Positions 1,978-57,020 of a stretch of 64,000 nt of DNA are shown piece by piece (the first letter of the stretch is position 1; every line of letters starts with the position of its first letter). The stretch is taken from the NCBI GenBank assembly GCA_900095095.1, contig FMBT01000298.1, positions 558,001-622,000 of the forward strand, given 5' to 3'. The notes under the pieces are model-generated. The model made no database searches and was not told the origin of the DNA. It saw only the letters and a program-made list of their open reading frames with translations. The position numbers were made by a program, and so were the translations under genes. Source of the stretch: Fragilariopsis cylindrus CCMP1102. Taxonomy: Eukaryota; Bacillariophyta; Bacillariophyceae; Bacillariales; Bacillariaceae.

Positions 1978-2142
1978 CTAAAGTAAATCATCATCACTGT
2001 CACAAAATGAAACATCATCAAGATCACCTTCTATAGAATCTCCAGCAGCTGCAGTTGGCATTGATTCCATAACCATATCATCATTATTATCGGTACATGT
2101 TGTTGTTGTCGTCGATTTTGATGATAAGAATTGTGATAATGA
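1765..2142 (-). repeat. Diverged tandem duplication of the SLBP terminal exon
   Basis: The segment 1951-2142 (SLBP 3' UTR start plus the last ~55 codons) is matched by 1765-1946 in the same orientation, with landmarks such as TTTAATTAGTCCTA, CAGCAG(C/T)TG and CGATTT(C/T)GATGAT in the same order. Read on the minus strand, the downstream copy keeps a stretch ending in SFYDSDDG and a stop, against SFCDSDDD in the gene. It has an in-frame stop and indels further upstream. It is either a decayed exon duplicate or a candidate alternative last exon. Confidence 0.75.
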
Positions 2143-2904
2143 ATCATCGTTATTAGTTACATCCACAAGATTCAAAAGTCCAGAATTTGCAAGTTCTTTT
2201 TCTTTAACAGATAAGGTAGGATCATTTGGAGACTTTCTCTCTCCTTCTTTTTGATGTTGTTGTTGTTCTGCTGTCACCGCTGCGTCTTGTGCCGCGACAA
2301 ACGACTGTTGTAGATCTACCGGATCATATTTATGCAATGCAATACGCCTAAATAAATGAATAATATATGTAGCATAGCATAGAAAACATGAAAGAAAATT
2401 GTAAGAAACCAAACATTATTATAATGAAGAAAATTACTAGTACGTACAGTATGAACGGTTTATTCTGCGACGTAATAAAGCAAATAATAATAAAAATAAA
2501 TAAAAGGCGACGTACCAAGATTAATCATTCCAAGCCATTTCTTGTTGGGGATGTCAATGTATGATCAGGAGTTGATGGAGTTACCATTGATCGTTTCTGA
2601 CGTTTCTCTTTGGGAACTTTACTACAATATATATCATATCCGACCGTATTTTTACCCTTCCCAATCACCTTCCGCCGTTGTTGTATTTTATGTGCATGCT
2701 GAGATTCTTAGTATCTAATTTATTAAAAACTCTTTCTTGTTTGGATGCATCTTCGCATGATTTGGAATGGAATTTGATTTTCTTTAGGGATGTTTTGCCA
2801 ACTTTTTGGTATGTTGGTTTCTTGCTCAACGATTGTTGTGCTGTTTGTGACATCCTAGACGACGACGATGACGATGATGATGATGATGATGATTTTTGTG
2901 ACAA
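1978..2904 (-). CDS. SLBP: Histone mRNA stem-loop-binding protein (SLBP), frameshifted
   Basis: Binds the 3' stem-loop of replication-dependent histone mRNAs. Exon 1 is 2904-2516 and exon 2 is 2347-1978, around a 168-nt intron with donor GTACGT. The protein (253 residues if repaired) has a Ser-rich start. Its RNA-binding domain shows RRK, GKNTVGYD (family: KNT..YD.Y), a TP motif, then KKWL and RIALHKYD (family: RRSWD...W+..LH.WD). An acidic, Ser-rich tail ends DSDDDLL, resembling acidic SLBP C-termini. Three places need one extra base to keep the domain in frame: ~2672-2683, the G run at 2547-2550, and the AA at 2517-2518 just before the donor, where an added base makes a conserved Trp codon across the intron. 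With these the coding length is an exact codon multiple. The tandem copy of its 3' end lies just downstream. Confidence 0.85.
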
Positions 2905-3607
2905 ATTATTCGTGTTGCTATCGGCTGTGTTCCCATCGTGATTATCTTTTATCTTTTTTTATATTTCAATGCTTTCGACGGGTCCTTGGTGTTACTGGCG
3001 TACAGTTTCTTTGGGGGTATGAGTTAAGTATTAGAGCAAGAAAAGTGTGAACTCATGCAGTAGTAGTAAAGGGAGTCTGAAAAAGAATGATTTAATTAAA
3101 AACAATGCCACAGCGTAGTTACTACCGTGATTTTACGCGTAGACACGACAGTATGAATCAATCGAAATGCATGAAATAACTTTTTGGCGCGGAAAGAATA
3201 TGTGCGCAATTTTGTGTGTGTATGGTACTTAATACTCGTATACGTACAGTATCATACCAAAATAAGGAAAAAAGAAAAAAATAATATCCATTCATTAGAT
3301 ACACTCTACTATGTCTCTATTCCCTTCTAGGTTGTAGCACACCTACTAGTAATATATACCTAGATAGAATCTATACAAATTCAAATTCTAATGTATGTTG
3401 ATCTGCCTTAATTATCAATCTTAAATGACTTGGTCAACATAAAGGAGAAGAAGATAGACATACAGCTGTGTCTACGGGCAATCTTTATCATCGCTTTTTC
3501 TAGCTACTACGACTACTATACTCATATCAATATAAATCAATCGTATCACAATCCATACTGTCGTAAATATTTTTAATTTAGCAATATTGGTATTATATAA
3601 GTAGTAT
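2905..3607. other. Intergenic, nothing recognised
   Basis: AT-rich spacer between two minus-strand genes, holding the upstream region of SLBP and the 3' flank of the ADF-H gene. No RNA gene or long reading frame is seen. Confidence 0.5.
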
Positions 3608-4123
3608 CTACCTAATGGTACCCATATCATCTTCTGTAATATCAGGTTTCATTTCAATCTCTCCATCACAACCCTTCAGTACATTAAATACACCATTCTT
3701 ATACATTAATGTACGACCTTTCTTCATTGCTGGACAATTTTCATCTATGTAGACAAAATGTACAAATTTACCATTCTTCTTTTGTAAACGAATACCACCA
3801 AATACGGCACCACCGACATCAGTTATATAAGTAGTAGACGACAACTTAGCCGAAACAACATCTATACCACCTTTTCCTTTTTCAATTAATTTTAAATTAT
3901 TTTTAGAATTTCCATCATATCCGATCAATAACCAATCAACATCAACATTTGAGTCATCACGTACTTCTGCCCATGCTTCACCAACAGTAGGACATACAAC
4001 CACGCCACTACCTCGTTTAATTCCACCAGATCGTGGATCAGTTTGAAGTGTCCCTGCAATAATTGGTAGTGTTTTTTTTTGACTGCTGCTAGCAACGTTC
4101 GACGACGACGACGACGATGACAT
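3608..4123 (-). CDS. ADF-H domain (coactosin-like) protein
   Basis: Uninterrupted 171-residue frame. A poly-Ser start is followed by an actin-depolymerising-factor homology fold of the coactosin/drebrin type: EAWAEVRDDSNVDVDWLLIG, then a strand-rich core with GGIRLQKKNGKFVHFVYI and CPAMKKGR, which corresponds to the family's K-F-..-W/Y-I-G..-P..K+.. region. Coactosin-like proteins bind F-actin without severing it, so a cytosolic actin-regulatory role is inferred. The extra ~30-residue N-terminal segment is not part of the fold. The start is the first AUG of the frame and lies in a normal upstream context. The family is clear; the exact subfamily (coactosin versus drebrin-like) is less so. Confidence 0.72.
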   Translation of the reverse strand: MSSSSSSSNVASSSQKKTLPIIAGTLQTDPRSGGIKRGSGVVVCPTVGEAWAEVRDDSNVDVDWLLIGYDGNSKNNLKLIEKGKGGIDVVSAKLSSTTYITDVGGAVFGGIRLQKKNGKFVHFVYIDENCPAMKKGRTLMYKNGVFNVLKGCDGEIEMKPDITEDDMGTIR

Positions 4124-4702: not shown

Positions 4703-5574
4703 ATGATGAACTATCAACGAAGGACATTTCGCGGAAATAGTGGAGCAAACGATAGTCGTCTTCCAAAACACAATGCTCGACGGCGAAAGAAGACGCCGCA
4801 GCAAGACATAGATTCAGATTCAAACAATAATATTGACAACAAATTTCATTCGTCGTCTGAGTCTGAGTTTGAGTCTAGTCTTCAATTATTATAGCATTTA
4901 TAGAAGATCATCAAGGGGAGGTTGTAGAAGATTCATTTGGAAGTTCGAATGATGGTAAAAGAAATGACAATGACAATGACGATGACGAAAATGATGACGA
5001 CAATACTACAAGTACGGACGATCCTCCCTATCTCGATGAAATTAAAATACTGAAACGACGAATCAAAAATATTCAAGAAATATCAATTGGAACTAGTGAT
5101 GCAATTGTAGGTAATATTACTACGTATCAAGATAATGTGTTGAATGCAACAAAAAAGTGTGTTAATCAATGGAGGTCTATTGTAAGGTATCATAAAGATG
5201 ATAGTCGTCTTTCAGACGAATTACGGAAGGAGGTAGGTATATCAGTCTTTCAATTGATTCAATTGTCTATTCAATCTGGACCATTGTCAGGGGGAAAGCC
5301 AGGATATTTCAAACGATGTGGTACAAAAATTGCTCAAATGTGTATGGATTTTTTGAACGAAGTCGTTCCACAATACGAAGAATTAAGCAATTTAATGGGA
5401 TTTTCGTCCAATCAAATGGATGCAATGAAGAAATGGATATTGAATGCTGAAAAAGCTGTTCAGGATGATAAGCCACCATCCAAATCTGTCTCAAAAAAAA
5501 TGCAGCAAAATCAAAGTCAACAACTGCAACAACAATCGAAAAAACAGAAGAAGAAACAAAAGAACAAAAAATAA
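4703..5574 (+). CDS. Uncharacterised acidic/basic protein, one frameshift
   Basis: Not recognised. The N-terminal frame (4703-4894) is basic then Ser/Glu-rich and stops at TAG 4892. The next frame is open from about 4879 to the stop at 5574. Adding one T in the TTATTATAG stretch (about 4885-4892) joins them into 290 residues. The order is a basic Arg/Lys start, an acidic low-complexity linker rich in Asp/Asn, a helical core from about residue 115 with KILKRRIKNIQEI, NQWRSIVRYHKDDSRLSDEL and GKPGYFKRCGTKIAQMCMDF, and a Lys/Gln tail ending KKQKKKQKNKK. The helical core looks like a folded, possibly conserved domain. The Lys-rich tail suggests nuclear or nucleolar location, which is inference only. 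Confidence 0.6.
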
Positions 5575-7829: not shown

Positions 7830-10800
7830 TTAAGAGAAAAGAGAGTCGGCCCCAAAGAGCACCTTCCTTCTCTCAGATAATGTTAAATTTTGAATTGGAT
7901 GATGCTGGCTGAGTTCAACAATGCCCGCAATGAAATTCGAAGGAGGGATGGAGCTTTCCAAAAGCTCCACGCCAATATTCGTATTTTTGGTACCATTTTC
8001 GATTATAACTTTGAGTGATGGAGCAGAGAGAAGCTCTTGGTCAAGTAGTTTTTCCCAAGATGAGGTACTTCTACCTTCTTGCTTTGATCTCTGCTCTCCT
8101 GTTTGTGTGATACGAGATATCACAGCGAATCTTCTTATGAACGCTATGATGTACAAATTGGCATGAATCTTGACTTCGTCAAGAATTAGATTAACTGCCC
8201 GAGCTAGAACATTTCTGGCGGTCTCTGTAGGCCCAGAACGGCAATGAAACCAAACAGGACCATAGTTTGGATCAGCATTAGCGCACCGAAGTTCTAGCCT
8301 AGATATATCAAAGAAACCATGACTCGTATCAGAGTATAGGCGATCAAGAATAACTTGGACAGTAGATTTTCCAAGGTGTGACTCAGCAGATATCGCTTCT
8401 AACGCGTCCTCTCCGTTCGCTGCGTATTCACGAATGTTGCTGAGCTCGACGAGAATTTTAGATATGTACTTGGTGAGGCCCTCCTCCCAAGTTTCTTCTT
8501 GTTTATTACCAATAATTTTATTTTTACTTTCTTCCCAAATAAGAGTACCGATAGGTAACAAGAGCTGATCGAGAATTAATAGACGAAGGGTTTCGAGGAA
8601 TCCATCTCCATACTGCGGAGTGAATTTTGTGGCAAAATATAGATGCCTGTTGGCCCGATGAAGATCGAAAGTATGAGAAAAGGGATTCAAATGAATCCTT
8701 GCTCCTTCGCACCAAACTTCACCACTCTTCGGGACAGCATTCAATGCGAGTGCTAACGACTCGAATTGCGCTTCTTCGACGTCAGCAAGATGACGAAGTT
8801 GTATTAGCGATGCCCAAAGTCTACCAGTTCCAGAATGCTGTCGAAGAGCTTTCTGGGAAAGTGCAATTGCCTTGGTGTAATTCCCATTACGAATAGCTAA
8901 CATCACGCTTTCCAACCATACCTTCCAGTCAGAGCCCCCCACATTACGACTTCTGCATAAGATTGCATTCGCGAGTTTGACATCCCCTACAAACTCCTCA
9001 AGTCTTGCACATTCCAATAGAGCGACAGCTCTTCCTTTGTCAGGTACAACGCGGTGCGCTCTGAGAAAAAGACGACGTGCTATATCCGAGTTTCCAGCTG
9101 CCACTTCCATCCTTCCAGCAGCGAGCCATACTTTCCACCTAAGATTAGGAGGGCACGAAATCATAGTTAAGGCAAATCGTTTTCGACTCATTTCCATTAC
9201 TTGTAAAAAGGTTGGGTCCGTCGACGAGTCGAGGTTCTCTGTCGAGGAACGTTCCAGCATTTGTGCGGCTTCCAGATGAACTTTCCATATTAGCTCCTTG
9301 CTAATACTGAGTGTTGCTCTATCAATCATGGCCATAGATTGAGGAAGTCGATAAATGTGATCTTCTAGGTCCAGCTCCTCGCAGAGACGGAATGCTCCAA
9401 ACCAAAGAGGTCCATAACGTGGAATTGCATCCAAACCCCGCTCTACAACCGCTAACGCCTCCTTGGAGTGACCAAGATCTTTCTCGAGCTTGTAAGCTTC
9501 CAAGTACAAAGGACCGTACCAAGGAACGTGATGCATGAGGTATTTCAATACTCTTCTTGCCATTACATCATTTCCAGCTCTCGCCTCCAACATAGCTCCT
9601 TCAAGAACTGTTCGCCAGACCTTTTCTATCCCAACGTGCTTGAGTCGTGAGAGCAATTCTCGAGCACGAGAATATTTCCCCTTTTCTCTTCGTGTTTAAT
9701 TGCTCGAGTTAGCAGATTTTCGCTATACTCGCAGTATTCTAGACCTGCAAAAAGGATCTTGGCACAAGCGTTCATATTCCCACACTCTTCTTCCAATTTG
9801 CTAAATTCAAGCCAACCCTGACTAGCATACGGTTGTAACGTATAGACCTGTTGGTACAAATTCCTTGCTTCTTCGAATCTGTTAGAACGTTTTGCTAAGT
9901 CAGCAAGCTCTAGAAAGACTCTCCAATGGATAGACTCAGGCAAAGACCCATCCGATAATGAAGACATCGCATACTTCTCGGCGTCTTTGAATGATAGTCG
10001 TTCTTCTGCCCTGAGTCTACGATAAAAATCTTTAAAAGATGATCGCGTAGCCGGACTCTCTGTAAGTTCAGCACGTTTGGCATCTGCCGGATCTTCCGCT
10101 TCTACATGAAGAGCGTTAGTTTGATCAGCTATTTCTTCCACCGGTGTATTTAAGGATCTTTCACTCTGAGTGGGTGTACTTCTATCCTTAGTTTCGTGTT
10201 TCTTTTTCCCACCCTTGGTGCTGGTCGATGATTTCTTCCCACCAGAAGCAACAGATGAAACCGAATCTACTCTTTGGACCCCCTTGTCGTTATTACTAAT
10301 ATTAGCATTCGTATTCTTCTGTTGGTTCTTATTGGACCATTTCCGTGAAACATTTTTGCGCTGGTTCTTTCCGCGGCTCGGTGGTCGCCCAACTGTTGGT
10401 GCGAAAGGTGATTGACGTTGTTGAGGATTGAATGCATTGGATTGCGAACCGTCCATGGAAGGCACTTCCCCCTCTTGAGGCCATAGAGGGTGAGCTGGTT
10501 GTGCAAGCATGATTGAAGGAGATTCTCGTAAAACTTGTTGTAGTGGAGGATGCATTCTATACTGCTGTTGCTGCTGCTGTTGCATCTGCCATCCAGCATG
10601 ACTTGAGTAAGTAGATGCGTGACCATATTGATCAAGATTAGGAGAAACCATGCCATCGTACTGCATGGACATGTTCGGTGCCGCCCAAGGTTGAGGGGAC
10701 GGCGCAAACTGGGGAGGATGTTGAGTAGGTTGAGCATGAGGTACATTCACATTTGACATAAAGTCTGGTGGTGGAGGTGCATGGTGCTGATGTAAGCTCG

Positions 10801-15756: not shown

Positions 15757-16301
15757 GAATGATTGACCGTAAGTCGATACAGACTAAATGCTTTAAATAT
15801 TTTTAAAATATACATTTATAGAAAAAAATATAGGATATACTAGGACTAAATAGTGTGCCTGCTACAGTATAAGCGCTAATATTCATTGTTGCTATAGAAA
15901 AGGATAGGAAAGAAAAAGAGTTCTGTGTCTTTGTCGTCGTCATGAAGATGCCTCTTGACTACACCTCTACTAGTAGTCACTTTCGATGTTCACAAATTTT
16001 CAAGTATGCTAAGGTACTGAATTAGTCACTTCTATATCATTTTCAATTACAGTACATTAAAACATGCAATCTAGCAATGTTTACCGGTACTAGTAAATTG
16101 AAATGTGTATCATTCTTTTTTTGTCTTTGTGCTCGATGCTTGATGTTCAATGTTGAAAACAACAACGAACAACACACAAGAAAAGAAAAGTTGACGATGG
16201 CAGGAAGAGCACTACAAGGGCTAATCTAGAGAAAGATAAAACGCAAATATTACAATCTGCTACGGTATTACTACTTTATTGCACTGCATAATCAGGTCAA
16301 G
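15757..16301. other. Intergenic between DBP9 and VPS53
   Basis: 545 bp, AT-rich. It holds the DBP9 3' flank and the VPS53 upstream region. No gene is seen. Confidence 0.5.
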
Positions 16302-41408: not shown

Positions 41409-41623
41409 TAAAATAAATGAATGCATACACATATTCATAAAAACTTTATACATATTAAATTAAAATCAGATACACCCAACAACAAATAAAAGAGAGAGAA
41501 AGAAAGAAAGATATAATAAAATATTTTAACTTATTCCTACAATTCTTTTTTCAATTATCAAAATTAACAAGCATGACTTTTTCTTCTTGTTCTTCTATCA
41601 TTGCTATTTTTATTATTCATCCA

Positions 41624-42925
41624 TTACAAATCGATGTGTTTTACAAAATCAATATCCAATAGAGCAAGTTCAAGTCCTTGCTTAATTTTATTCGCTCCAC
41701 GAAAGCTCAATTTGACTGTACCAATTGGATCAACGTCTATTACTTTTACTAGACCACCCATAGCAAGAATAGCAGGCTTGATCCTATCGACTTCCTTTTG
41801 AACTGCTTGGAATGATAATGTTTTAGGATCTTGATCTTCTCCTTCTGTTCCACCTGCTTCTACTTGAAGAACTTCACCTAAATCAACAAAATTCTCCTTC
41901 AATACACGTTCAATTCCCATTTGCATTGTTACAGTAGATGATGGACATGATCCACATGCACCCTCAAGTACTAAATATACATTCTTCGTTTCCTCGTCAA
42001 CTCTCTCAACAGAAACATTACCACCATCAGATATAAGATATGGACGAATTTCATCTAGGACACTATCAACATTTTCTTTGTTAAAGGCTAATGCCTCACT
42101 CGTATCTACAGTACTTGCGTAATTAGTATCAAATGGTGATACGACATCACTACTCTCCGATGATGATTCAGTTGGTGCTGGTGTTGCTGATTCATCTATC
42201 TCTCTTGATGATGTCACGCCCTGACGAACATTCGACATGGCACCTGTCATCATCTCAAAGTAGGAATTATCCATTTCATCGTCATCATCGTCGTCGTCAT
42301 CATCATCGTCTAAATAGTCATCGAGATCCATGGCTGACATTACCGGATCAAAATTTGTTTTTCCATTCACTTGGAATGCTTCCTTCCTCCAGTCAAATGC
42401 AATTGATTCCATCGCATTATCATTCGGTATAATAAATGAAAGAGCACGAATATATGAAACACGATCGGTACCATATTCGTCCAAATGTGTTTGTAACGTT
42501 GTTGCTAAATCATGAGTAATACCAATATGTTGACAGACTTCCCATCCCTCTCCTTTTGCTTTCTTATAATCAGAATTGAGTACGGCATATGCTCCAGCTA
42601 CTTGATGACCCTTCAACCCAACCAACATAATTTTGATTGGAAGAATACGTTTTCCGTTAATAACCGGTGCAGGAGCTTTGTTACTATTGCTATTAGTATC
42701 ATCGTCGACAGTAGTAGGTGTTGACGTCGATGCGAATAATGATGTCGATGACGATGAAGATGACGGTATTCTCATTGTCGTTGGATTTGATACAAGTATC
42801 GGTGAAGTGAGGAAGCCATGAGATAGAAGATGGTGATTTTCATAATTAGTGAAGATACAAATACTGGCGGTGACAATTGTCAATAACAACAGACGAGGTG
42901 AACGGTATTGTGTTGTCGTTTTCAT
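41624..42925 (-). CDS. NFU: Plastid NFU-type iron-sulfur scaffold with GIY-YIG-like domain
   Basis: Intact 433-residue frame. The N-terminus is a signal peptide then SHGFLTSP, a diatom-type plastid cleavage site with Phe after the small residue. Residues ~96-185 (VAGAYAVLNSDYKKAKGEGW … VCQHIGITHDLATTLQTHL) resemble a degenerate GIY-YIG fold, like the one fused to plant GRXS16. A poly-Asp tract (about 205-217) follows. The NifU domain (~285-360) carries the Fe-S-binding CGSC at 324-327 in EGACGSCPSS. A second, Cys-less NifU-like repeat ends the protein (KPAILAMGGLVKVIDVDP), as in plant chloroplast NFU1-3. Role: assembly or transfer of Fe-S clusters to plastid targets. The GIY-YIG resemblance is the less certain part. 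Confidence 0.85.
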   Translation of the reverse strand: MKTTTQYRSPRLLLLTIVTASICIFTNYENHHLLSHGFLTSPILVSNPTTMRIPSSSSSSTSLFASTSTPTTVDDDTNSNSNKAPAPVINGKRILPIKIMLVGLKGHQVAGAYAVLNSDYKKAKGEGWEVCQHIGITHDLATTLQTHLDEYGTDRVSYIRALSFIIPNDNAMESIAFDWRKEAFQVNGKTNFDPVMSAMDLDDYLDDDDDDDDDDDEMDNSYFEMMTGAMSNVRQGVTSSREIDESATPAPTESSSESSDVVSPFDTNYASTVDTSEALAFNKENVDSVLDEIRPYLISDGGNVSVERVDEETKNVYLVLEGACGSCPSSTVTMQMGIERVLKENFVDLGEVLQVEAGGTEGEDQDPKTLSFQAVQKEVDRIKPAILAMGGLVKVIDVDPIGTVKLSFRGANKIKQGLELALLDIDFVKHIDL

Positions 42926-43579
42926 GATTATTTTCGTTTTATACTTTTGCTTGATGTTGTTTCTTTCTGCCTTTCACTTGCTTGCAATAGAGAATTATTT
43001 GATTACGAGATTTCGAACAGAATTTTTTGTGATTACTGCGAAGATTGAATTGGCAAATGGTTGATGATCACGCAGAGCTGTGATGGTTGTGTTTCGATTC
43101 TGTTCATTAAAGACACGAGAAATGTGTGTAGCGGTTGAATTCGGGGGCAATAATCAAACAAATAAAGGGTAAAGAAGGGGGGTAAAACTTAGATCTTAAA
43201 ATTTAATTATTTACGATGATTATTTAGTCAGTTATCAGTTATCTCCTACAAGTAGCTACAGTAGTAATGTGCCTATACAATTTGCAATCTACCCTCCACC
43301 ATGACTATGTTTTGAAGAGTGGCGTTCACTATACGACTTTCCTACAGATGGACATGTCGCTAAAGCAGGAAGTCTGACGACAAAAAGAAAACAGAAAATT
43401 ATTGAAGAAGAACCCAAAAGTACTTCTGTCTCTCTGCAAGTTTCATTTCCAGGATTCTATATAGTATAGACTCTATGATTATTTCTACTCGGTTAGTGGG
43501 AGGAAAGTCACAACCCTCCATAGATATAATTTACCATGTAGAAATGCCACCCCCCCCTCCCCCTCCTCTTCCTCCCTGG
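42926..43579. other. Intergenic upstream of NFU
   Basis: 654 bp between two minus-strand genes. A C-rich tract lies near 43549-43566. No gene seen. Confidence 0.45.
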
Positions 43580-45749
43580 CTAGTCTATAACAACGTCAGG
43601 CTCGTTCATCATGAACTCTACCGATGAATCCCTTCCCGAGCTCACCAACTCTGATTGATCGCGTTGTCGCCTTCTAGGATTGCATCTACAAATGTGTATG
43701 ATACTACAGGTTAGGATACTACCAATTATGAAACTTATAGCCATTGATATTACCCAAAACATAATTCCGTAATTCATTGCATATTGCTCGGAAATAGACC
43801 AAAAAATACTTTGTCCGGGCGAATCAATAATCTCATCTTCTATGCCACATCCTCTATGTTCTCGTGTGGCAAATTGCGTAACTCGATTCATCAATACAGA
43901 TACATTGCATAAATGTGAGTATTCTGGGCAGCCTTCTATCAACCATGTAAGCACCTGGCCATTGTAGACAAGTCGAAATCGGTATCTAGAAGAAGGGTCA
44001 TTGAAGGTAGATGATTTGCCTTCTATACCTTCATCAATAACCTCGTGAATCTGTCGCATATAGGTAGTTAGATAAATTGACAAGCCGTTTTATGAGTGTA
44101 GTGTGTGTGTGTGTGTGTGAACAAAGAGAAGTATCTCGTATCTTACCTCTATTATCATCATGCTAGCATACCATGGAAAGTTTGTATTGTTCCAAATATT
44201 TGGACTGAGAGATGCCATGAGTGGAGCAATAGTTGAATCATGTCCGGAATATAGTGCAAATTTCACATAGTCCGTTTCTACAATCTTGTCATTTTTCTTC
44301 TCCTTTATGACAGGTTTGATATAGTCTACAATCTCATTCCAAAACGGTCCCATGTCCATCTTAGAAAGCTCCGAATCATTGTATCGATTAGCCATGGTTT
44401 CATTCACAATGATCTAGTAGCGATATAGGCGGTACAGACGAAATTCAGTTCAAGCATGTGTGTATTATATTGTTAGAAAAAATCACAATAATAATATTAA
44501 TAAATAGTCAAGGACAAGCGAATGGATAAAGTAGCAATTAACAATAGAGTTGACGAATATATATATATATATATATACATAATACATACATACATACATA
44601 CATATTATACGTACATAATTCATAAGACGCTCAAAGCGATTAGGACCATACTTTTTAGTGTATTGATTATCATCCACCTCACTACTTTCAATTGTAATCA
44701 TTAATAACATCTGGTAGGCTTCGATCGGTACAGATACTTGACATAAGGCAATCTGTAGCACCAAAAGTAACATCCGCACCACGTAGTAATTCATCTTTGA
44801 TGAGTTGTTGCATTAGAACACTTTCATCGGACTTAATGAAGGCCTGGTATTCTTCTGATTCGTCACTGCGAGATATAGCAGCTTTTTGAGTGGGGCACAT
44901 AAATTTTCCTTTTACACTCGAAAGAATGTCAACCTTGCGATCTGCTGTATGGTGGGTGATGATAGGATTTACACCATTATGTGCCTTATTATAATGCAAT
45001 AATTCAGGACCAAACATTGTCGATAATAGAACCTGTCCCGATGCCAACGTTCTTTGATCGTCGTCAGATCTGTATCGCAATTTACCATTAAGGAACGGAT
45101 AATCTCCATCGTCGTTATTATTATTAATCTTATTATTATGTAACGATGACGTATCAAACAATCGCAGACGCGGATCTACCTGTGATGAGCTGTTACTGCT
45201 ACTTGTACTACCATCGTACAAATAGGCATTACGGAGATGTTTCCCATTGGATGTTTGTTGGTCATAACCTTGTTTAATTAATTGCCCATCCTGACAGGTT
45301 CCATTCATTCTGTTTCTGTACGGTGCCTCATCACCTTGAAATGCATCATATATCTTTTCTACCAAAAACGAACCCTTATCTTCGTCATCACTTTGTCCTT
45401 CGTAATAAGGCCTCGTTGAAAGAAGCGTCGTCAATTGGCAGTCCCAAATCCCATCCTCATTTTCCCAATGCCCATCAAAGCAATGTTTTGTGTGTATAGG
45501 TGTACGGGCACCGTGTCGGATGATTGCAGATACATGTACAATCTGGGTATTCTCGTTATTACTTGTTGGTAATGGAGGAATATTACGCGTTGCCATTTCA
45601 GGTATATCGGAACAATAAGGTGGATAAGCTTCATAACGTTGGTACGAGTAGAACTCAGCTGACACGTCAAGAAAATTTAGTGAAGCCAGTACGGTGGATA
45701 ACCATATCGCAAAGTAGGCGTACATGTAATAGGTCGTCTGAATTCTCAT
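43580..45749 (-). CDS. Membrane-bound histidine acid phosphatase, frameshifted
   Basis: Histidine-phosphatase superfamily, branch 2. A signal peptide is followed by the catalytic RHGARTP (residues 78-84), GQLIKQGYDQ, LRYRSDDDQRTLASGQVLL (second basic cluster), then YSGHDSTIAPLMASLS with the proton-donor HD. A C-terminal membrane helix (YGIMFWVISMAISFIIGSIL) and a basic cytosolic tail resemble lysosomal acid phosphatases. Exons are 45749-44615, 44413-44147 and 44050-43580. Intron 1 (201 nt) contains TA and ATAC microsatellites and intron 2 (96 nt) a GT tract. The frame changes in TACAATTGAAAG at about 44690-44700. Unlike the other breaks in the window this needs two extra bases (for example in AA and TT) or the loss of one. 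Probably extracellular, surface or vacuolar phosphate release. Confidence 0.82.
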
Positions 45750-46367
45750 CCTACTCTATTCAATACTAGTGTGTGCTTTCGTATTTGTTTCCAAACAGAA
45801 GAATGAACTAAGAAGATTCATTGATGTCGAATTTTGTTAAAAAAAATTGGTTGGCAAAATATAATAAGGCAAAATTTTGGGTTTTTGTGTCTCTGGATAT
45901 AGTATGATTTACAAACATAAATAGGTCCTAGCACTCAAACTAGTATATTTCTACGTGATCTAATAGATTTACAGAATTAAGATTTTTACTTAATGACATT
46001 ACTTCATAAAAAATTGAAAAATATTTTTAAGAAATTTCCTTTTACGACTTGTGCCCCTCTGACGAGGTGCTCAAAGTAAGGTCCTAGTCCATGAAATTTT
46101 TTAAAATTTACAAGGGGGGTTCGAGAAACTGTTAATTGTAAATTTCGTTTTTGTAATACGTCATATGGATTTTCCCGGTAGACCACAGCCACAATCAACA
46201 GCCGATCAACAATAAGAAAGTTGTTACAACAAGCAAATAACAATAAGAAAGTTGTTACAACAAGCAAATCTTCATACCTGCTTCTTGTACTTGTACTGAA
46301 TCGCTATTGGGACTGTAGTCAATATCATCAGCATAGTCGAGTATTCAGGTTTAATATCCCGTAGGTC
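45750..46367. promoter_or_regulatory. Divergent intergenic space with 31-bp tandem repeat
   Basis: 618 bp between head-to-head genes. A 31-bp unit beginning CAATAAGAAAGTTGTTACAA is repeated twice, at 46210-46240 and 46241-46269, about 100 bp upstream of the symplekin start. Confidence 0.6.
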
Positions 46368-49300
46368 ATGTATCGTTCAAACGATCGCCGCGGCGGGGGT
46401 GGTGGGGAAAACCTCAAGGACAACCTTGCTAGTCTAACACGGATGCAAGAAGATGACGATAATCAAATGAGTGACGACGATAATGCTGCACCTGAAATGG
46501 CATCAGAACTTGATGAGGAGGGTAATATGGATGAATCTTTACTGGACGATCCAAGAAAATTAGCATTAGAAGATTTAGAAGGTCGGGTTGTGAATGCACT
46601 TGATGATGTCATGCAACATATTGGGATTAAATCACAGCAACAACAGAATGATGATTACAATAATAAGACGTCTGTCCAAGACGAACTCGCGACTTTATTA
46701 CGACCTGTAATAGAAGTAGCTGCACATACAGCACCTAGTATTGCTCGGACATACTATCAGGGTGGTGGTAGTTCCGCCGCTGAGGGAGTGGAAACTTCGT
46801 GTGATGAAGTATACCAACAGGTCGTTAGTGATTTAGTATTACCAAGTTTGTTTGATATTGCACAAACTGATCCAATCCCTGCCAAGCGTAGTGCTAGTTT
46901 AGAATTTTTCCGTACATTATTCAAAGAATGTCAAAAGCCTGGTAGTTGGTTGGATGTCAATTATAATACGAATAGTGCAAATGCGGGACCGTACGGATCA
47001 GGTATGAATAACAAAAGTTCTTCATCACGTCAACGTCAACCTCCAGCACAACTTAAACGACGACAAATCAAACGATTACAACGAGAGGGAGAGATATTAC
47101 GATATTGGGTGAAAGCAAGCATAGCTTGTCTTACGCCTGGAGTTTTCACTGCAGAAGCATCAGAAATGACTGTCGCATCAAGAGGAGTGATTGCTGCATC
47201 GGCATCAATCCGTCCTTCTTTGAAACATATCAGTCAAAGGATTCGTGATGCTGATGATCGAGGAGCGAATAAATTGTTCACGCCTGTCATGCAAATGGTA
47301 GAGGGGGTACGTAACCTGTATAAAAACTAAATCGTGTACATGTTGTTTACAAGTGCATTGGTGTGAGAAAAGTGAAGGCATATGATGTCATATACATTGT
47401 CCTACTTGTACCAAGCAGCTCCCACTTATCATTTCTTTTTTCTTTCTTCTACTATTCTTTTTTTACAATTTTGATTTCTATTGTTTTCTGTTATAACACG
47501 ATATATTTCTTTATTCTCACTCTCTGTTGACAGGTGTTAAAAAAACTGTTCTTTTCAACGTCGGAAGCAGAGCAAGGGGATGCCCTTCGAAGTTCCTGTA
47601 TCAAATTTCTTGAAATTGTTTGTCTTTGTTGTTCAGGTAAACCCCAGGATAACTCGCGACGAAAGGAACACACAGTGAGTATCTGATCTGGTCGATTATT
47701 AATTTGTTTTAGAAAAGATACTGTATGTGGTATTTAGCATTAGTAATACTTGTAGCTCTAAATCTAATACAAGGTTCTTTCTTTTTTTCCTTCCTTTGTG
47801 ATTCTTTCTTTCTCTCTTCTAAACCATGCTCAATTCATAGCGTGACGATTTCTCGTTGAACGACCTTCCGGAAGGGCATCCAATCATTACTAGAGAGGCA
47901 TTGGAATCCATTGCTCATTATGCATTTTCTACTCTACGAGGTCTCGCAATGTTGGGAGGACAAGTCAAAATCGATAGAAATCTGCTCTCCGATATGTTGA
48001 TGGGGGAATCAACTGGATTACCAAGTGCACCCGTTATCTCCATCTTAAAGCCTGCTGCGTTAGCCTACTTGGAGATCGAGTCCAACCTTCCTGGTAGTGA
48101 TGGAGAGGGTGCGTTGGACATCAACATAGATAGATCTTCTCATGAATATGACTTCTTCCTCTCGCATAAATCATACGCTTTGACTATTAATGCGTTGGCA
48201 GCCTTGGCCATTAATCGGCCAGTTTTTTTCAAGAATGGTGCGGTTTGTTTGGCACGACGGTGCGCTGATCCGCCAACATATGTAGATCAAGATGATGTGG
48301 CATACCGTGATATTAATCTTTCCAAATCGGCAGTATTAGCGATTCGGTCGCATATCAAGGCCTCTTGTTTGACTCTTTTGCGTAATGCCTTGTCGGTTCA
48401 GACACAATCTTCTACCATTCTCCATAAAGTTCTGGAGGAGAAGTGCAATATGAAAATCCAAGCCGATAAGGCCCTTGGAATGGCCGAAACCACAGTCAAA
48501 CTTAAGACTGCAGGTCGTGCGGCACGTACCCAAGCCAGAACATTTTATGAGTGGGACACGAGTGGGACCTCAAAACGGCAACGAGAGACGGATGATGCTC
48601 TAGCCAAGATGCGTACAGCCAAAGTCGCTCGTGGATTGGGCCATGGGATTCAATTACCGTCATCTACAGTAGATGCAATCGAATTGGTTATAGAAAATAT
48701 CAGACATTTGCCGCCCAAGCGTCCGGGCACTTCTGCAGCTACGTCTTCGACGTCCAAGAAAAAGACTCCTTTTACATTGGACTTCCTCGTTGATGCCATC
48801 ATGACCAATGGCGCATCCTTGATACAAGAAGAAGGACGTTGGTATTCAAGAGATGGAGGCAGCGCCTGGTCAACATCAACTCTAGCAAACGAGGGAGAAA
48901 GAAAATACGAACTGAATATAAAATTCCTAACTGGTAACATAGTTGATGAAGTTGAGAAAAGCAAAAACAAAGACAAAGGGGCAAGAAGGAAGATCAGAAA
49001 AACATATTTGACAGCCAGCGTCGGACAGCAGCTTCCGAAGCTGTCGGCCGAATTGTTATCAGTAGCTTGTCGAGTCGCAATAGCGAATTGTCAGAATTTG
49101 CAAGTAACGTTGCTGCTCGCTTGGCATGGACACTTGAGGGTGTTCCTCCCCCTGAACACTTGAAACCAGCTCAAGAGATGGCACTTGACTCGATTCAAAG
49201 CTCGAAGGCGCGAATTGATGATCCGAAGAAGCACAATGCAATGGACAAGCTCGCAGAAACATTTCCTTTGGTAACCTCGTGTCTATCTTTGTCGTCTACT

Positions 49301-51055
49301 TCGACAATTTCATATGAAAAGGGTGGCCCCTTTATGGATGGTACGTCTTCGTTAAGCAGTGCTATAATGAACGAAGCCTACGCCCAAGATGCATGCAATA
49401 ATGAGCGTAGTGAGGATGACCAAGAAAATGCCTGGAAATACGACGCAAGCCTTGATATCTTTGCAGGTTCCGTTGTTCACTCAAGTGAACGATGTAACGA
49501 TAAACCTGCAGACGCCGAGAAGAAGAGAGTAGCAACAGATACCACTAACTCCTTACAGCATGAATTTGCAATACTCCCACGTCTCAGCTCGTCGGCTTTG
49601 ACCCTGGTTAGCGCTATGTGTGATCTCGATGAAGTAATTAAAAAAGCAGCCGAAGCCGCACGCAAGAATTCACAACAAACCATTGCGGCATCTGCTGCAC
49701 TGAACGCGGCAAAGCAGGCAGCAGAAAAAAGGGCGAATACAGCTCTGCTTGTGCTTCGCGATGCATGTTTCCAGCGTAGTAATCCAAATACTAGAAAAGG
49801 AGCGATACGAATAGCTGTTGCTCTAGCAGCTGGGCAAGCGAATGCAAGTTCCAGCTGCGAGGACAAGGCACTGAAACTTGTTGTCAATATGATATATCCT
49901 AGATCACAAACTATTGCAGATGATGTTGTCGAGGCTGCGACTAATGAAATCAAAGCCATCTCCGAGTTTTCGCAGAATAGTTATACCAAGATTCAACGAG
50001 CTAATAGAGAAGCCAGAGATAAAGAAAGCGAGGCATCTCACCAGTCTCCCTTTGCGCCAAAAAGTGAAGAAGAAAAAGATGCCATGGACAAGGCTCGTAA
50101 ACCAGTGATCTTGTTCATGGCACTTTGCATTAGACGTCCTGAGTTGATCAAGACACTTTTTGAATTGAGTTGTGTAGATAAGGCAGACGTCCTCGCAAAG
50201 ACAATTAAACAACACATGTCAAAACTTGCTCGAGCGGCAGGGACTAAGCATGGGGCTTCAGATGTTGCGTTGATGGTAGCTGAATCGACTGCTCGAAAAG
50301 AGACGCCCCTCTTGCTTTCCTTATTAGATACACTTGCCCCAGTGGGAGAAAAGAATATCGTCTCTCAGGAGTTTATTGAGGCTTGTTATAAAATCCAAGA
50401 AATAAAGTCCGAAGGCGACCGCAAGAATCCGAGGTTTCTGATTCCGGTGATTTTTGCGATCAAGCGTGTCGATCTAGTCTCAAAACTATCAGAATTCGTT
50501 GATGCCGATAGTGACGTTTTCATGGCTGCACTCGTCAAGATGGCAGAAAGGCTCGGTCGCCAAGCTCTTCTATTTCGAGATGAACCAAATCAAGAAGAAC
50601 CGTCTCTGAAGGGAATGACATATTGTGAAGAGCTTGTTTTCCTGCACAAGCTGGATTTTGAAGCAGCCGGTATCAAACAAAAAGATTACCTCGACGCCAT
50701 CAAAATGTGTTTGGACAACGAGGAGACTTTCACAGATCAAGTTGTTCTTTCAGCTCTTGATCACATGAGTGGCTGCTTTCTAACTGGTGCTGAGTCGCTA
50801 CCCTTAGCATTCATGCGGACCTGTATTTTAGTTTGTTCTAAACATGAGAGCCTACATGCATGGATATGTCATACCTTATTGCCACGATTAGTCGATGGCA
50901 AGCTTTACGAAGAAAATCGACTTTGGGAGGGATGGATGCGATGTGCAAAAATGTTGGAGAATCATGCAGACACCGGAGTCAGTAGCAAGGAGGCAATTGA
51001 TAAACTTCCATCAGAACAGCTTGCGATGTACAAAGCAAGGTATGGTCATGATTGA
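46368..51055 (+). CDS. SYMPK: Symplekin (Pta1), mRNA 3'-end processing scaffold, frameshifted
   Basis: HEAT-repeat scaffold of the cleavage/polyadenylation machinery; with CPSF it also acts in histone pre-mRNA cleavage in animals. Exons 46368-47306, 47534-47674 and 47841-51055 (GT-AG introns, phase 0), 1,431 residues. The N-terminal HEAT part has AKRSASLEFFRTLFKECQKP and ALRSSCIKFLEIVCLCC, followed by an Arg/Lys linker. The C-terminal 'symplekin C' region is diagnostic: NPRFLIPVIFAIKRVDLVSK, MTYCEELVFLHKLDFEAAGI, NEETFTDQVVLSAL, LPLAFMRTCILVCSKHESL, LWEGWMRCAKMLENHAD and KLPSEQLAMYKARYG. One extra base is needed between about 48975 and 49000 (near GGGG/AAGGAAG). It continues …KDQKNIFDSQRRTAASEAVG… into the second half and gives exactly 1,432 codons. 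The rest is clean. Confidence 0.88.
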
Positions 51056-51661
51056 TAGGGTTAACACCGTCGAATAGGGGAAAAACCCTTTTTAAGCCGT
51101 AATAGGTTAGAAGTAGATAGTAATAATCAAACGTCACGAAATGTAATTCCTATGATTATATCATTATAATAGTGATATCATCCTATCTACCAGTTATTTG
51201 AATATTTCCCTTTGTTTAATGATCTTATACCATGTCCTTGAGAAAGTAAACCGTATACAAAGAGGAACAATTATCTTGCAAGCCACCAGTTATGCTGCTG
51301 CACTTCTTGTGTACACTACGCTCGAAGTTCATCTATTCCTTCAACGTAGATCTTCCCAATTATAATGTTAATAAGGCAAGAGGATATTAACGAATGATTA
51401 TTACACTGGTGCTTTTTAAACATTTTTATGTTATACTTTGCTTCTACTATATAGCAAGGTTCCACTACGTGTATGTGCCCAGGTAAGGCAGATAGATGAT
51501 CTAAACAAATTATTTAATATACAATTATTATTGCCATTTTGGAAGTTCATCTTTGAAACCCTTCCGGTTTTACTTATCTTCTACTTTCACTCTTCTTCTG
51601 CATATACATTCAATGTAGTCTGCAGTAGTAAATGTCAACCGTTACTCTCGAACAAATCTCT
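51056..51661. other. Convergent 3' intergenic space
   Basis: 606 bp, AT-rich, between symplekin and the PH-like gene. No gene recognised. Confidence 0.5.
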
Positions 51662-54600
51662 TTATTTCTTCCTTAACGAAGATTGTGTCTTCTTTTTGTT
51701 TGATTCTTGTTTACTTAATTTCTGGCGCAACGAACGTTCCCTTCGAAGAAGATCACGAATAACTCTCATACACGTACACAAGAATTGAGCTTCATCATTG
51801 TCTTTACATCGGAACTCAATTGATCGAAGAAATCCACTCATCTTGTATTTTAAAGTAACAAGGACAGAATTCTGGAATCTATCCATCAACTTCTTTGGAA
51901 TAGGATGTTCCAACATGTCATCTTTTGAATCACTGACTTGAATTTCCACAAGGTCTACCAGTAGCATACCGCCATGTCCATTCTTATCGATATTCATAAG
52001 ACCGTAGCCACCGGTTTGGGGGCTGAACTTCTTCAGCCATAGTAAAGCTTTTGGGCATTGAGCTATCTCTCCAGTCTTGCTGATAGCTTCGTGAGCGGAT
52101 AAAGCAATCTGCTCATTAGAGACAGTGAAATATCGTGTCTGCCACTGTTTACGTGTATTCAGTTTCAAAACCTGTACCCCAACTGCTATCAATTGCTTAG
52201 AAAATTTCTCCATTAAGCTTCTTTGACTGAAGGAGAGAAGTATCGGCCCTGCAGTTGGTGTTGTCATTACCGTCGTTGATACTACGCACTCTGCATCACT
52301 AAAATGCGAAGGGCCCTCAGATATAAAATCAGTCTTCAATCCAGAGGAGTATTCTGAACTATATCCATCAGAGGATTCTTCCGAAGTCGAGCCCAAGTAA
52401 TCACCGGATTCTTCTGTACCACTTGAATGGTCAGAGGCTCCAGAACCACTCTCTTTCGTAGTACCTGACTCGGTTGAACCTGACGCGGCGACAGTGGGCT
52501 CTTCTGTGGTGGTGTTTTTGGTAAATTGGTCATCTTCTATTGTGAACTGATCATCTTCTATCATAGTAGATTCTCCTGATTTTCCTGAAAGATGAGATGA
52601 AAGAGCTACGCTGGCAATATCCAATAGCTTATCTCTGGCTGCCTCGCGCTTCTTGTCATGATCGTCTTTTCTGTCAACACTCGATTTATCCGTGAATTCT
52701 GTATCAGCTTTCGGACTCCCAATGACACTATCATTAAGTCTATCCCATTCGTTCCAAACTTTCTTCTCCAAAGAAGTCAAACCAGAATGTGAGCTACCAG
52801 AGTCATCTCCGAGTACAGTTTCTTTGACAGGATCATCCACCTTGTTCCCTGGGGTACACAAACTGGCAAATCCACCACATGGGTCAACAAATCCGCATCC
52901 AAAGTTGAGAAACATCGAACTAACTGCTTTCTTCTCCTCGTCATCGTCTTCTTCTTCTTGAACATCTAGTATATCCTCCTCCTCCTTTGGCCTCAATTCT
53001 GCTTCATTTTTGGTCCCAGACAAGAGGTTACCGCACAAATTTCGTTCATTAGGTAAATTATCCATTTCTTCCTCCATAACCGTTGCCTCAACAAAGGTTT
53101 TGGATAGGGAAGTCCTGGATCTTCTACTTGACTTTGATATGGAAATGGGAGACTTCGTCATTTTGTCTCTGGTTATTTCCATTTCATTGTTCTTCTCGCC
53201 AAAATTCTCGCCAAAATCGAGCATTTTTGTAGCTTCGGTCATTGCTTTACGAAATGGATTGGGTCCACTTATTGGTCCATCAATAAGTGATGAAGTAATA
53301 TCGGAGTTAACATTATGGACGACCTCAGATTCATCTACAACCGTACCGGATCTATCGTTAGAGTAAAGAGAAGATGAATATGTGCCTGCAGCAGCAGATG
53401 GCGATGAAGACGCTCTACTATGCTGCTCTGGAAGAGCATTGCCCAATATTTTGATATCACCAGAACGCCGTGTGTCACTTTGCGGAGTTTTTCGCCTACC
53501 AGCAGATTCATTACTTCGGCGTGATCTGTCTTTATTTTTTTCGATTGACTTAACATTTTTTTGCTTCGGCGTTTTCATGTTAATTTTCTTCTTCTTTGGC
53601 TTAGTTAATGTCTTAGGCTGTTCAGCAAAATTGTCTTCTAGGCCTCCAAAGATGTCATCATCGTCATCATCATCTAATGAAAATAAACCTTCAGATTCAT
53701 CTAGCTCTTGATGCCTACTATGCCTACTACTGGTAAAGCCAGATGGTGTGGTTACAGGAACCCCCGCTCTTGGTGATGCCTTGGCCAATACATTTTTGAT
53801 CGCATTACCAATACTCTTACCAAAGTTACCTTGCCAAGCACGAGAACTGCGGGATGCCGGTGTCAACAAGCTTGTACCGTTATTTGAAGCTTCTTCGCCT
53901 CCAACGTCTTCGGTTTGGATTGGAGGGAGAAGCTTTCTATTCGCAGACACCACAGGATCGTCAAATCCCGTGTCGTTTCCACTATCATCTGAGGAAATCT
54001 TGTACGAAGAAGAGCCTCCGGAGCCGGTTGCTTTTCCTGCCGAGGATTCATCTGTTGTTGCCGTGTACTTTACTTTCAAACCAGAGAACGATGTTTGATC
54101 TTCTTTTATAGACGTGGTTGACTTTTGAGTAGACTTTGCTTCATTTTCTTCCTCAATTGTGTCTGGAATTTGGGGTGAGAAAATTACTGGTATCTTTTGC
54201 GTGAGGATGTCACCACCTGAGCCCTCATTTTTGGCAGCTTCTATTTCCTGGATAACATGTTGCGGAGTGATACTAGTGTTCTTAGCGACATCGATCATAT
54301 ACTCTGTATGGATACTAATTGAATTATCTGTATCATTTTTGAGACCCGAGAGCCCTGCTCTGATACTAGTAGATCCCTCAAAAGGTTCTTGACCTACACT
54401 CTCGAATGCTGAATCTGGATTGGCAATCAGTATAACAGGACCATTTTGAATACTCGACATTCCGCTTCGTATGCTTGTAGAGACTGTCTGCTTTGTTGAG
54501 CTACTTCCTTGCTTTTCGTGAGCAACCTCATTGTTTTGATTGCCGTCTTCGATATCAACAGAGGAATCAATTTTTAGTATGCCCTGTTTGAGTTCGACAT

Positions 54601-57020
54601 GAAACGAGTTGTCTTCCAGTTTACTATCGATATCGGGTACAGAGACAGCGTCAGCCAGAGCGAATTCTTCCTTCCCCACTGGGTCAGGGGGGGCTAGAAC
54701 ATCTGTTTCGTCGCTATCGTTGAACACAAATCCTGGAGGGGAATGAGAACGACCAGAAGTGCTTGGTAGGATAGACATAGCTGCAGCCATGTAACTCTTC
54801 TTGACTATCGTACTTGTATTGACTGGTTTCATGACTTTGTTCGGGTTTTTCTTCGGCGAATCGATAATTTCCATGTCTTCGACTGCAGCGAGAAGAGCAG
54901 CATCTAAAACTTCTGCAGAACATCCAGTTGATTCTTGAGAAGATGAGTTCATTTCAAGCAAAGCTTCCATGAAAGAACTGTCACTAGGATCGCTGAATGT
55001 TGGACTACGAGGACCAGCTCTTGGACTAGCGGATATAATAGAGTTCGCAAAAGAATGCGCGGATCGATTTGATGGTCCGGGTGATAAAATTGGTGCGCTC
55101 ATTTCTGACCTCATAGTTTGTGTTGAGTATTCAGGCGTAGGATCAAGAAGAAAGGAAGAATTTTGAGTTCTTTTATTAGCTGGACTTTGCCTTTTGCTTG
55201 CGATGGATCTGCTTGCGATAGATTGGCTCATGATAGATTGATTCGTGTTGCTTGACAAAGAGCTGACACAAGTATCGTTGCAATTGTTTCTTGCTGTCAC
55301 ATGTAACCTTCCCATCTGATAGAAATGGCTCGTCCCGCTTGTAGAATTCATCATACCTCCTGTGGAATGCATTGATTCTGCTTGCCTCCCGCTGATTGAA
55401 TGCATCGTTTCATTCTGGTCAAGCGACTCAGCGGATTCAAACTCGAAGAATTGATAACTTCTAAGACAGTCCCCTGATTACCGTCGGCGATGCCATTCTT
55501 GGCCATTGAAACTGTTTTTACTGACAAGATAAAAGTATAATGTTAGATGGGAATCTACATGTATTAAGAAAAACCGTGAACGAATTTACCTAAGAAAATG
55601 AAGTCTTACCTTGTTGATGTGATGGAAGGGGGCTACTTCGGGTAGCGTTGAATTGACGAAAGCTGGCTAGGATATGCGCAGAAGATACGTTTGATGCATT
55701 TTTCCCTCTAGGGGATGGTCGACCAGCAAAAGCTGGATGTTCCGATCTTCTACTTCTACCAGATTCATTAGATTGCAAAGATGACGTCCTTTGAATCTCG
55801 TAACTAGTTTTTGCACCACTTTCACTTCCTCCTCTCCTCTTGCTTGAATTTTTCATTGCCACGGCTCGACTGGCTTTAACACCTAGTCGCTCTGAGGCAC
55901 CACCGTCCCCAATCGACTTTCTACTTGCGTTGGGTACTTTCTTTTTCATCATAGTCAAATTGAGTAGGGCACGACGAGCATCTGTCTGTGAATTACTTCG
56001 CGTGCTGCTTGGTCTTTTTGTCTCGTTTAGTCCGTTTTTCATCTTACTTTTAGATATTTCCAATGCTCTCGTAGCAATTTCGCTCAATTCCGTATTGCTA
56101 AGGGATGAACGGGAGGAAACATCCGAGGCACCAGCCTCACTCTTCTCTTCTTGCATAACAACCTCAGCTGCCTTAAGACACTGTTTCAATCCTGTTTCTA
56201 TAAGTGGGGAGGGAGATGATGCACCATTTCGTTTTGCTCGCATTAGTCGCAAAGCCCGGCTCGATTTACCCCGATGACTTGTACTGTCGTTGGTTGGGAT
56301 TTTGTTCTCGTTGTCGTTGTCGCTTGAGCTGCTATTTTTACTGGTCTTTGCCTGCGAGTAACTAGATGAATCAGCAACTTTACTCTGCAACATTTTCGCA
56401 CTACTCCTTATAACTGGGCTCGTATATTTGAATTGTTTCTCCTTTTTTTGGGGAATCTTCAACGGGGAACTTTCCACCTCCATAACTGGGTTCGTATACT
56501 TGGATTGTTTCTCCTTCTTTTGAGGAATCTTCAGTGGGAAACTTTCCACCTTCATCATGGCCTTATTCATTCTAGGACTCGATGTCTGTCGAACAATATG
56601 GTCTCTATTTTGAAGAACTTTAAATGGGGATGGGCTGTTTTGTAGTTTACTAGAGGGCAAGATGACAGGGGGCATGTTTTCGGGAAGCATCTTCTTTTTG
56701 CTAGCACTAGGTACCGGTATTCCATCTTCGACTGGCCAGTCCAAAGCCTTTTTCCTTCCAGGAGAACTAGCATATGATGGCGTTTGGAGTTTTTGTCTCT
56801 GATATGACGAGCCAGGAGAAAATGGGACCGATGATTTGGGAGTATTCGATGTCAAAAATGCGGGGGCTACCGATTTAGGTCTAGGAGAGGCCGATGTTTT
56901 GAAAGGTGACTTGGAAACCACGCTCCCCATTTGATGATAACTTCTCTCTGGCCTATCATTACTAGGACTCGCTAGATTCCCAAACATCTTCGCACGGTCC
57001 TTGACCGAAAGCGACGACAT
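51662..57020 (-). CDS. Very long Ser-rich protein with C-terminal PH-like domain, frameshifted
   Basis: Exons 57020-55610 and 55520-51662 (89-nt GT-AG intron, phase 1) plus one extra base at ACTCGAAGAA (about 55441-55448) give 1,756 residues. The first ~1,550 are disordered: Ser/Pro/Lys-rich with many SP sites, an imperfect 27-residue tandem repeat (VESFPLKIPQKKEKQSKYT / VESSPLKIPQKKEKQFKYT), acidic blocks and a duplicated EDDQFT. The last ~190 form a globular part that looks like a pleckstrin-homology fold: VLKLNTRKQWQTRYFTV as strands 1-2, LWLKKF, LVDLVEIQVS, then VLVTLKYKMSGFLRSIEF and a terminal helix AQFLCTCMRVIRDLLRRE (the PH alpha-helix). Lipid or protein binding at a membrane or cytoskeleton is inferred. 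The many SP/TP motifs suggest heavy phosphorylation. The family is not otherwise recognised. Confidence 0.7.

What the first reader, a model, noticed from the sequence alone, without database searches (positions are those of the whole stretch)
1978..55448. Recurrent one-base frameshifts, all in the same direction, across conserved genes
At least 15 reading-frame breaks hit SLBP (3), the 4703 gene, the HAT protein, VPS53 (2), the 22355 gene, nicastrin, the binding-protein gene, the kinase, CDK7, EMC7 (2), symplekin and the PH-like gene. Each is repaired by adding one base, mostly at a short homopolymer (GGG, GGGG, AAAA, TTT or T6). After repair every multi-exon gene sums to a whole number of codons, and conserved motifs run across the break. 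One-sided homopolymer deletions are a hallmark of insufficiently polished long-read assembly. If the genomic sequence is real, it would imply widespread -1 frameshifting or insertional RNA editing, which would be remarkable.
Basis: partly seen in the sequence, partly recalled or inferred. Interest (0 to 1): 0.7.

Follow-up and report, generated by a model that had tools for sequence, protein, structure and literature searches.

The report
Assembly errors, not recoded genes
The broken genes in this diatom-like alga are best explained by single bases lost from the genome assembly, because duplicate pieces of the same assembly lose different bases in the same genes, so this is a sequence-quality problem and not new biology.

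Summary
I tested 13 reading-frame breaks in the window directly and all 13 are of the class 'one base missing'. Two more follow if inferred introns are right. Conserved domains continue across the joins in CDK7, EMC7, the binding-protein gene, SLBP and, weakly, VPS53. A codon-usage decoder finds only this class at strict settings. The host is diatom-like: 67.9 Mb in 818 contigs, with second copies of much of the window. In 27.3 kb of coding DNA, contig C371 differs from the window by nine one-base losses, all in C371, and two substitutions. Against C289, a SNP-diverged copy, four of eight judged breaks of this contig, including SLBP at 2555, are absent: C289 has one more base and an open frame. 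C289 has three breaks of its own where this contig is open. A canonical -1 slippery heptamer occurs at 1 of 13 breaks. Best reading: residual one-base consensus deletions. Against it: all nine directly tested breaks in C371's range are shared by C371, one HSP70 gene elsewhere has an insertion, and no reads or RNA were available.

The parts
2704..2707 (-). SLBP first break, shared with C289
   Evidence: frame class 2; no difference from C289; upstream side not conserved
2547..2560 (-). SLBP second break, inside the RNA-binding domain; C289 has one more base and an open frame
4879..4891 (+). break in the uncharacterised 4703 gene
   Evidence: frame class 2; decoder
9672..9680 (-). break in the HAT/TPR-repeat gene
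   Evidence: repeat profiles extend over the join
16964..16982 (+). VPS53 first break
   Evidence: shared with C371
18000..18012 (+). VPS53 second break
   Evidence: shared with C371
23190..23290 (+). 22355 gene, break inferred after an inferred intron
   Evidence: by eye
24905..24909 (-). nicastrin-like gene break
   Evidence: shared with C371
28683..28688 (+). binding-protein gene (two Peripla_BP_4 domains) break
   Evidence: shared with C371
32279..32300 (-). protein-kinase gene break upstream of the kinase domain
   Evidence: shared with C371
38216..38221 (-). CDK7-like kinase break; C371 lacks a further base beside it
41104..41122 (+). EMC7 first break
   Evidence: shared with C371
41177..41183 (+). 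EMC7 second break at a run of T; C371 lacks a further A just downstream
48977..48985 (+). symplekin break
   Evidence: shared with C371
55439..55477 (-). PH-like gene, break inferred after an inferred intron
   Evidence: (laxer penalties only)
16134..55801 (.). stretch with a second copy, contig C371, 99.57% identical
1..3789 (.). stretch with a second copy, end of contig C289

Best explanation
The breaks are residual one-base deletions in the consensus sequence of the assembly of a diatom-like genome, most likely a long-read assembly that was not fully polished. The genes are intact in the organism; the consensus dropped single bases, somewhat more often in short runs, and the printed frame slips. 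Shown: the direction of the breaks, continuity of conserved domains across several of them, and that the missing base is present with an open frame in a second assembled copy at 4 of 8 judged breaks in C289's range. Inferred: that the breaks shared by both copies have the same cause (shared reads, shared polishing or systematically misread sites), and that the data are long reads.
For: 13 of 13 directly tested breaks are of one frame class. With X at the joins Pfam matches become continuous: Pkinase 1-134 (108.1 bits; pieces 24.9 and 72.5), EMC7 9-122 of 122 (64.2; first piece 44.1), Peripla_BP_4 5-253 of 258 (67.4; first piece 45.4), SLBP 2-59 of 70 (57.5; piece 50), Vps53_N 4-183 (115.9; piece 113.8, a small gain) (six of the nine joined proteins were searched). 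CDK2 aligns without a gap through the CDK7 join. C371 against the window: in 27,342 coding bases 9 one-base losses, all in C371, none in the window, 2 substitutions, and each loss breaks a frame that the window keeps. C289 against C182:546949-561789: 42 substitutions and 43 one-base indels. C182 is short and broken, C289 open, at 549261, 553095, 554179 and window 2555; C289 is short and broken, C182 open, at 547530, 549731 and 553038. At 553038 and 553095 the two copies are broken at different points of one gene. Chaperonin genes on C347 and C655 are each split by one missing base. In T. brucei 98% of error-suggesting variants of a long-read assembly were indels or complex, while true heterozygous ones were mostly SNPs (PMC8445201, passages).
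Against: All 9 directly tested breaks in C371's range are shared by C371 (no difference at the site), and 4 of 8 judged breaks in C289's range are shared by C289, a SNP-diverged copy (549673, 552878, 554073, window 2704). Independent random errors would coincide less. Two 10-kb samples from other large contigs (9.1 kb called coding) show no break, and most chaperonin and HSP70 matches show no frame change, so the errors are uneven. One HSP70 gene has an insertion and another lacks a longer stretch. No reads or transcripts could be consulted.
Confidence: 0.93

Rival explanations
1. Real heterozygous frameshift alleles: the strain carries broken copies on one haplotype and intact ones on the other, and the assembly reports one of them.
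For: C289 and C182 differ by 42 substitutions, and seven judged breaks are in one copy only.
Against: One gene is broken at different points in both copies (553038 and 553095); in VPS53, nicastrin, CDK7 and EMC7 both C182 and C371 are broken. In C371 coding DNA one-base losses outnumber substitutions 9 to 2, the reverse of what natural variation in genes is known to look like (recalled, and PMC8445201 passages).
Confidence: 0.04
2. Programmed -1 ribosomal frameshifting: the DNA is right and the ribosome slips back one base at these sites.
For: The direction fits -1 slippage in 13 of 13. The HAT gene has GGGAAAT at its join.
Against: No canonical X XXY YYZ heptamer in the overlap of the two frames at 12 of 13 breaks. 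Four of eight comparable breaks vanish in the second copy because a base is present there, and the two copies show further breaks where the other is open.
Confidence: 0.015
3. Insertional RNA editing restores one base per site in the transcript.
For: Uniform frame class; shared sites occur in two contigs.
Against: Where a diverged second copy exists, the base is in the DNA at 4 of 8 judged sites. I recall no insertional editing of nuclear mRNA in diatoms; this was not searched for.
Confidence: 0.005
4. Missed introns or wrong gene models create the apparent breaks.
For: The apparent break at 29564 is best read as an intron; the 22355 and PH-like cases need an intron beside them; the first SLBP break, the kinase break and the 4703 break lie outside recognised domains.
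Against: At CDK7, EMC7, the binding protein, the second SLBP join and HAT only -1 to 17 bases lie between anchors on either side, too few for an intron, and domain profiles run on.
Confidence: 0.01

Closest known systems
Gene-fragmenting errors of long-read assemblies (Kastor, PMC12007338, abstract seen; Polypolish, PMC8812927, start of abstract seen in the listing)
   Same: Sparse errors that split genes; in Kastor's example correcting errors in under 0.05% of the genome lowered the pseudogene rate from 23.3 to 5.6%. Polypolish names homopolymer-length errors as the commonest residual kind.
   Different: Those are bacterial or small genomes with reads at hand; here a eukaryote without reads and only moderate homopolymer enrichment.
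Trypanosoma brucei Lister 427 assembly before and after error correction (PMC8445201, abstract and passages seen)
   Same: Apparent frameshifts in genes tied to indel errors; error variants 98% indels or complex, heterozygous ones mostly SNPs.
   Different: There corrected with accurate reads; here inferred from duplicate contigs.
Nanopore re-assembly of two diatom genomes (PMC8147415, three passages seen)
   Same: Says that most nanopore errors are indels that can harm gene prediction and that short reads were needed to correct them.
   Different: Other species, and polished.
Programmed -1 ribosomal frameshifting
   Same: Same direction of frame change.
   Different: Canonical slippery heptamer at 1 of 13 sites; half of the comparable breaks absent from a second DNA copy.

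Membership tests
Residual consensus indel errors | One-base indels are at least as common as substitutions between copies of one locus, coding DNA included | tested here: met
   Coding DNA, C371 vs window: 9 one-base indels, 2 substitutions. C289 vs C182, whole stretch: 43 and 42.
Residual consensus indel errors | Breaks are private to one assembled copy | tested here: inconclusive
   4 of 8 judged breaks of C182 absent from C289; 0 of 9 directly tested breaks absent from C371, which has 9 private losses.
Residual consensus indel errors | Enrichment at homopolymers | tested here: met
   14 of 35 isolated one-base losses in C371 lie in runs of 3 or more, against 17.8% of bases; p = 0.0017. Moderate.
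Residual consensus indel errors | Raw reads carry the missing base | not testable with these tools
   No reads available.
Programmed -1 ribosomal frameshifting | Slippery X XXY YYZ heptamer in the upstream frame inside the overlap | tested here: not met
   1 of 13 breaks (HAT).
Programmed -1 ribosomal frameshifting | Same DNA length in all copies of the gene | tested here: not met
   4 of 8 judged breaks have one more base in C289; not so for the 9 tested in C371's range.
Euplotes-type +1 frameshifting (recalled) | A base is skipped, so the printed DNA is one base too long | tested here: not met
   13 of 13 breaks are of the opposite class.
Insertional RNA editing | Extra base in RNA but not in DNA | not testable with these tools
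   No transcripts. The base is in the DNA of the second copy at 4 of 8 judged sites.

The most novel reading that the evidence does not exclude
The breaks shared by both copies (9 of 9 tested in C371's range, 4 of 8 in C289's range) are real DNA, and this alga decodes many housekeeping mRNAs by non-canonical -1 slippage or inserts single bases into them.
Probability: 0.02. Interest if true: 0.85.

Novelty: not a real feature. Interest (0 to 1): 0.1.

Why it matters
Gene sets predicted from this assembly will contain false truncations and false pseudogenes, and searches for recoding or editing in it would give false positives. The useful lesson is the test: duplicate contigs of one assembly can show that frame breaks are errors without any reads. 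If the shared breaks were real DNA, it would mean widespread recoding in nuclear housekeeping genes, which would be remarkable.

Tried and rejected
Wider count by large families: HSP70 and Cpn60_TCP1 were searched in the own genome and four split loci read. Two chaperonin genes (C347, C655) lack one base, one HSP70 gene (C693) has one base too many, and one (C70) lacks a longer conserved stretch. A fifth split locus, C451 at a contig end, is of the 'one missing' class by coordinates only. Other split matches in the tables were not read. A myosin-head search to widen the count did not complete.

Naming the species from papers: one search found none, one search listed nine papers, none taken as the source, one search listed one irrelevant paper. 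A search for diatom, programmed ribosomal frameshifting and nuclear listed nine papers; I saw only titles and abstract starts, and none claims it there.

Clustering of C371 losses near shared breaks (2 of 9 within 15 bases of 8 breaks, p = 0.006) hints at hard-to-read spots, but the 15-base limit was chosen after seeing the data. The stop-free-stretch measure was not decisive at every site (for example 24662, 34409, 548822, 553095), so I used the translations.

A correction made on checking: I had counted C182:548822 as a break absent from C289. There C182 lacks one base and, 30 bases upstream, two more, three in all, so both ends are in frame and I cannot say which copy is right. It is no longer counted (4 of 8, formerly 5 of 9). 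On the other side C289's loss at 549731 was added.

Rows not counted: differences at C182:547433, 548792/548822, 549848 and window 2913, where the right frame is unclear. One search listed coding differences only for decoder segments over 200 bases, so others may be missed.

Full report
WHAT WAS CLAIMED.

THE OBSERVATION. I compared the open stretches on either side of 14 places. Thirteen gave downstream = upstream +2 (mod 3), the class left by one missing base. The fourteenth, the second EMC7 join, gave class 1 because I had paired it with a wrong upstream stretch; with the right one it is class 2. One place, 29564 in the binding-protein gene, I set aside as a probable intron. The remaining 13 are two in SLBP, one in the 4703 gene, one in the HAT-repeat gene, two in VPS53, and one each in nicastrin, the binding-protein gene, the kinase, CDK7, two in EMC7 and one in symplekin: 13 of 13 in one class. 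For the 22355 and PH-like genes the same direction follows if introns read by eye are accepted. The third SLBP break is not supported.

Domains confirm that both sides belong together. Pieces match separate parts of one profile. Of nine proteins joined with X, six were searched. The kinase match runs over profile positions 1-134 (108.1 bits; pieces 24.9 and 72.5), EMC7 over 9-122 of 122 (64.2; first piece 44.1), Peripla_BP_4 over 5-253 of 258 (67.4; first piece 45.4), SLBP over 2-59 (57.5; piece 50), Vps53_N over 4-183 (115.9; piece 113.8, a small gain). For the HAT gene repeat profiles extend over the join (HAT_PRP39_C 6-137 of 139, 32.7 bits, just under its cut-off of 33). CDK2 aligns without a gap through the CDK7 join. 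A solved EMC7 aligns through both joins with a four-residue gap near the first and a one-residue gap after the second. SLBP structures align weakly.

A decoder using only codon usage, with equal penalties for both shift classes, gives deletion:insertion counts of 4:0, 7:0, 8:0, 14:2, 23:12 and 48:32 at penalties 9, 8, 7, 6, 5 and 4, and none at 11 or more. One of the eight at penalty 7 (11015) lies antisense to the HAT gene and is probably a shadow. At penalty 7 it gives 7:1 in C371, 5:0 in C289, 5:0 in C182:538001-558000 and none in 10 kb each of C265 and C91. The insertion-class call in C371 is at CDK7, where C371 lacks a second base beside the shared break.

THE GENOME. The window is C182:558001-622000 of a 67.9 Mb assembly in 818 contigs. 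The gene at 39250-39681 matches solved FCP light-harvesting chains best, which I take, partly from memory of those entries, as diatom-like; the species was not identified. The assembly holds second copies: C371 (39,568 bases) covers window 16134-55801 at 99.57% identity, and C289 (14,874 bases) covers C182:546949-561789 at 99.2%, window 1-3789 included.

TEST 1, C371. In 27,342 coding bases by my exon list there are 11 differences: 9 one-base losses, all in C371, and 2 substitutions. The losses fall in VPS53, a DEAD-box gene, nicastrin (two), the binding-protein gene, g33777, CDK7, an FCP gene and EMC7, and each breaks a frame that the window keeps. Over the whole alignment there are 46 one-base losses in C371, 11 in the window and 30 substitutions, many inside a few length-variable intergenic stretches; among isolated events 35, 5 and 10. 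So this assembly demonstrably drops single bases in genes.

TEST 2, C289. This copy differs by 42 substitutions, so it probably rests at least partly on other molecules. It also differs by 43 one-base indels (30 short in C182, 13 short in C289). Of eight C182 breaks that I could judge in this range, four (549261, 553095, 554179 and SLBP at window 2555) are absent from C289, which has one more base and an open frame, and four (549673, 552878, 554073 and SLBP at window 2704) are shared. C289 in turn is broken at 547530 (a light-harvesting gene), 549731 and 553038, where C182 is open. At 553038 and 553095 both copies are broken, at different points of one gene. Differences at 547433, 548792/548822, 549848 and window 2913 could not be judged.

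CONTEXT. Around the joins the longest run is four or more in 4 of 13, three in 4 and two in 5. C371's isolated losses lie in runs of three or more in 14 of 35 against 17.8% of bases (p = 0.0017), a moderate preference, so I do not name the sequencing platform. A canonical -1 slippery heptamer lies in the overlap at 1 of 13 breaks (HAT).

WHAT SPEAKS AGAINST. All nine directly tested breaks in C371's range are present in C371, and four of eight in C289's range are shared. C371 equals the window over its last 10 kb, so shared reads or polishing explain that part easily. For C289 one must suppose systematically misread sites or partial sharing. An HSP70 gene on C693 has five Ts where four would keep the frame, so errors elsewhere include insertions. 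C265 and C91 samples show no break. No reads or RNA were available.

PRINTED WORK. PMC8445201 (abstract and passages): 98% of error-suggesting variants in a T. brucei long-read assembly were indels or complex, heterozygous variants mostly SNPs, and such errors truncate genes. PMC12007338 (abstract): gene-fragmenting errors in long-read assemblies. PMC8147415 (three passages): indels in nanopore diatom assemblies and the need for short-read correction. That insertional editing of nuclear mRNA is unknown in diatoms is recalled, not searched for.

VERDICT. The breaks are most likely residual one-base consensus deletions; the shared sites keep a small chance open for something real.

Noticed in passing
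28000-30313 (+): A gene with Peripla_BP_4 (bacterial-type periplasmic sugar-binding) domains, apparently two, in a diatom-like nuclear genome; origin not examined.
   Followed up: no
window 45833-55801 and C371: C371 and the window are identical over these 10 kb but differ often before it, which suggests a duplicate contig partly built from the same data.
   Followed up: partly
window about 21970-22150, 27113-27590, 30751-30770, 40172-40190: Clusters of longer indels and substitutions between C182 and C371 in intergenic DNA, probably true haplotype differences.
   Followed up: no
L026 (C70:214001-215800): A BiP-like HSP70 gene seems to lack a longer conserved stretch in the middle, not a one-base change.
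   Followed up: no
L028 (C655:34401-36100): A chaperonin gene split by one missing base; the profile match beyond the break also reads over two stop codons.
   Followed up: partly
C182:548792-548822 and C289: C182 lacks two bases and then one base 30 bases on, which leaves about ten residues of a carrier-like protein different between copies without breaking the frame.
   Followed up: partly
9680 (-): The HAT-gene break sits on GGGAAAT, the only canonical -1 slippery heptamer among the 13 breaks; most likely chance.
   Followed up: no
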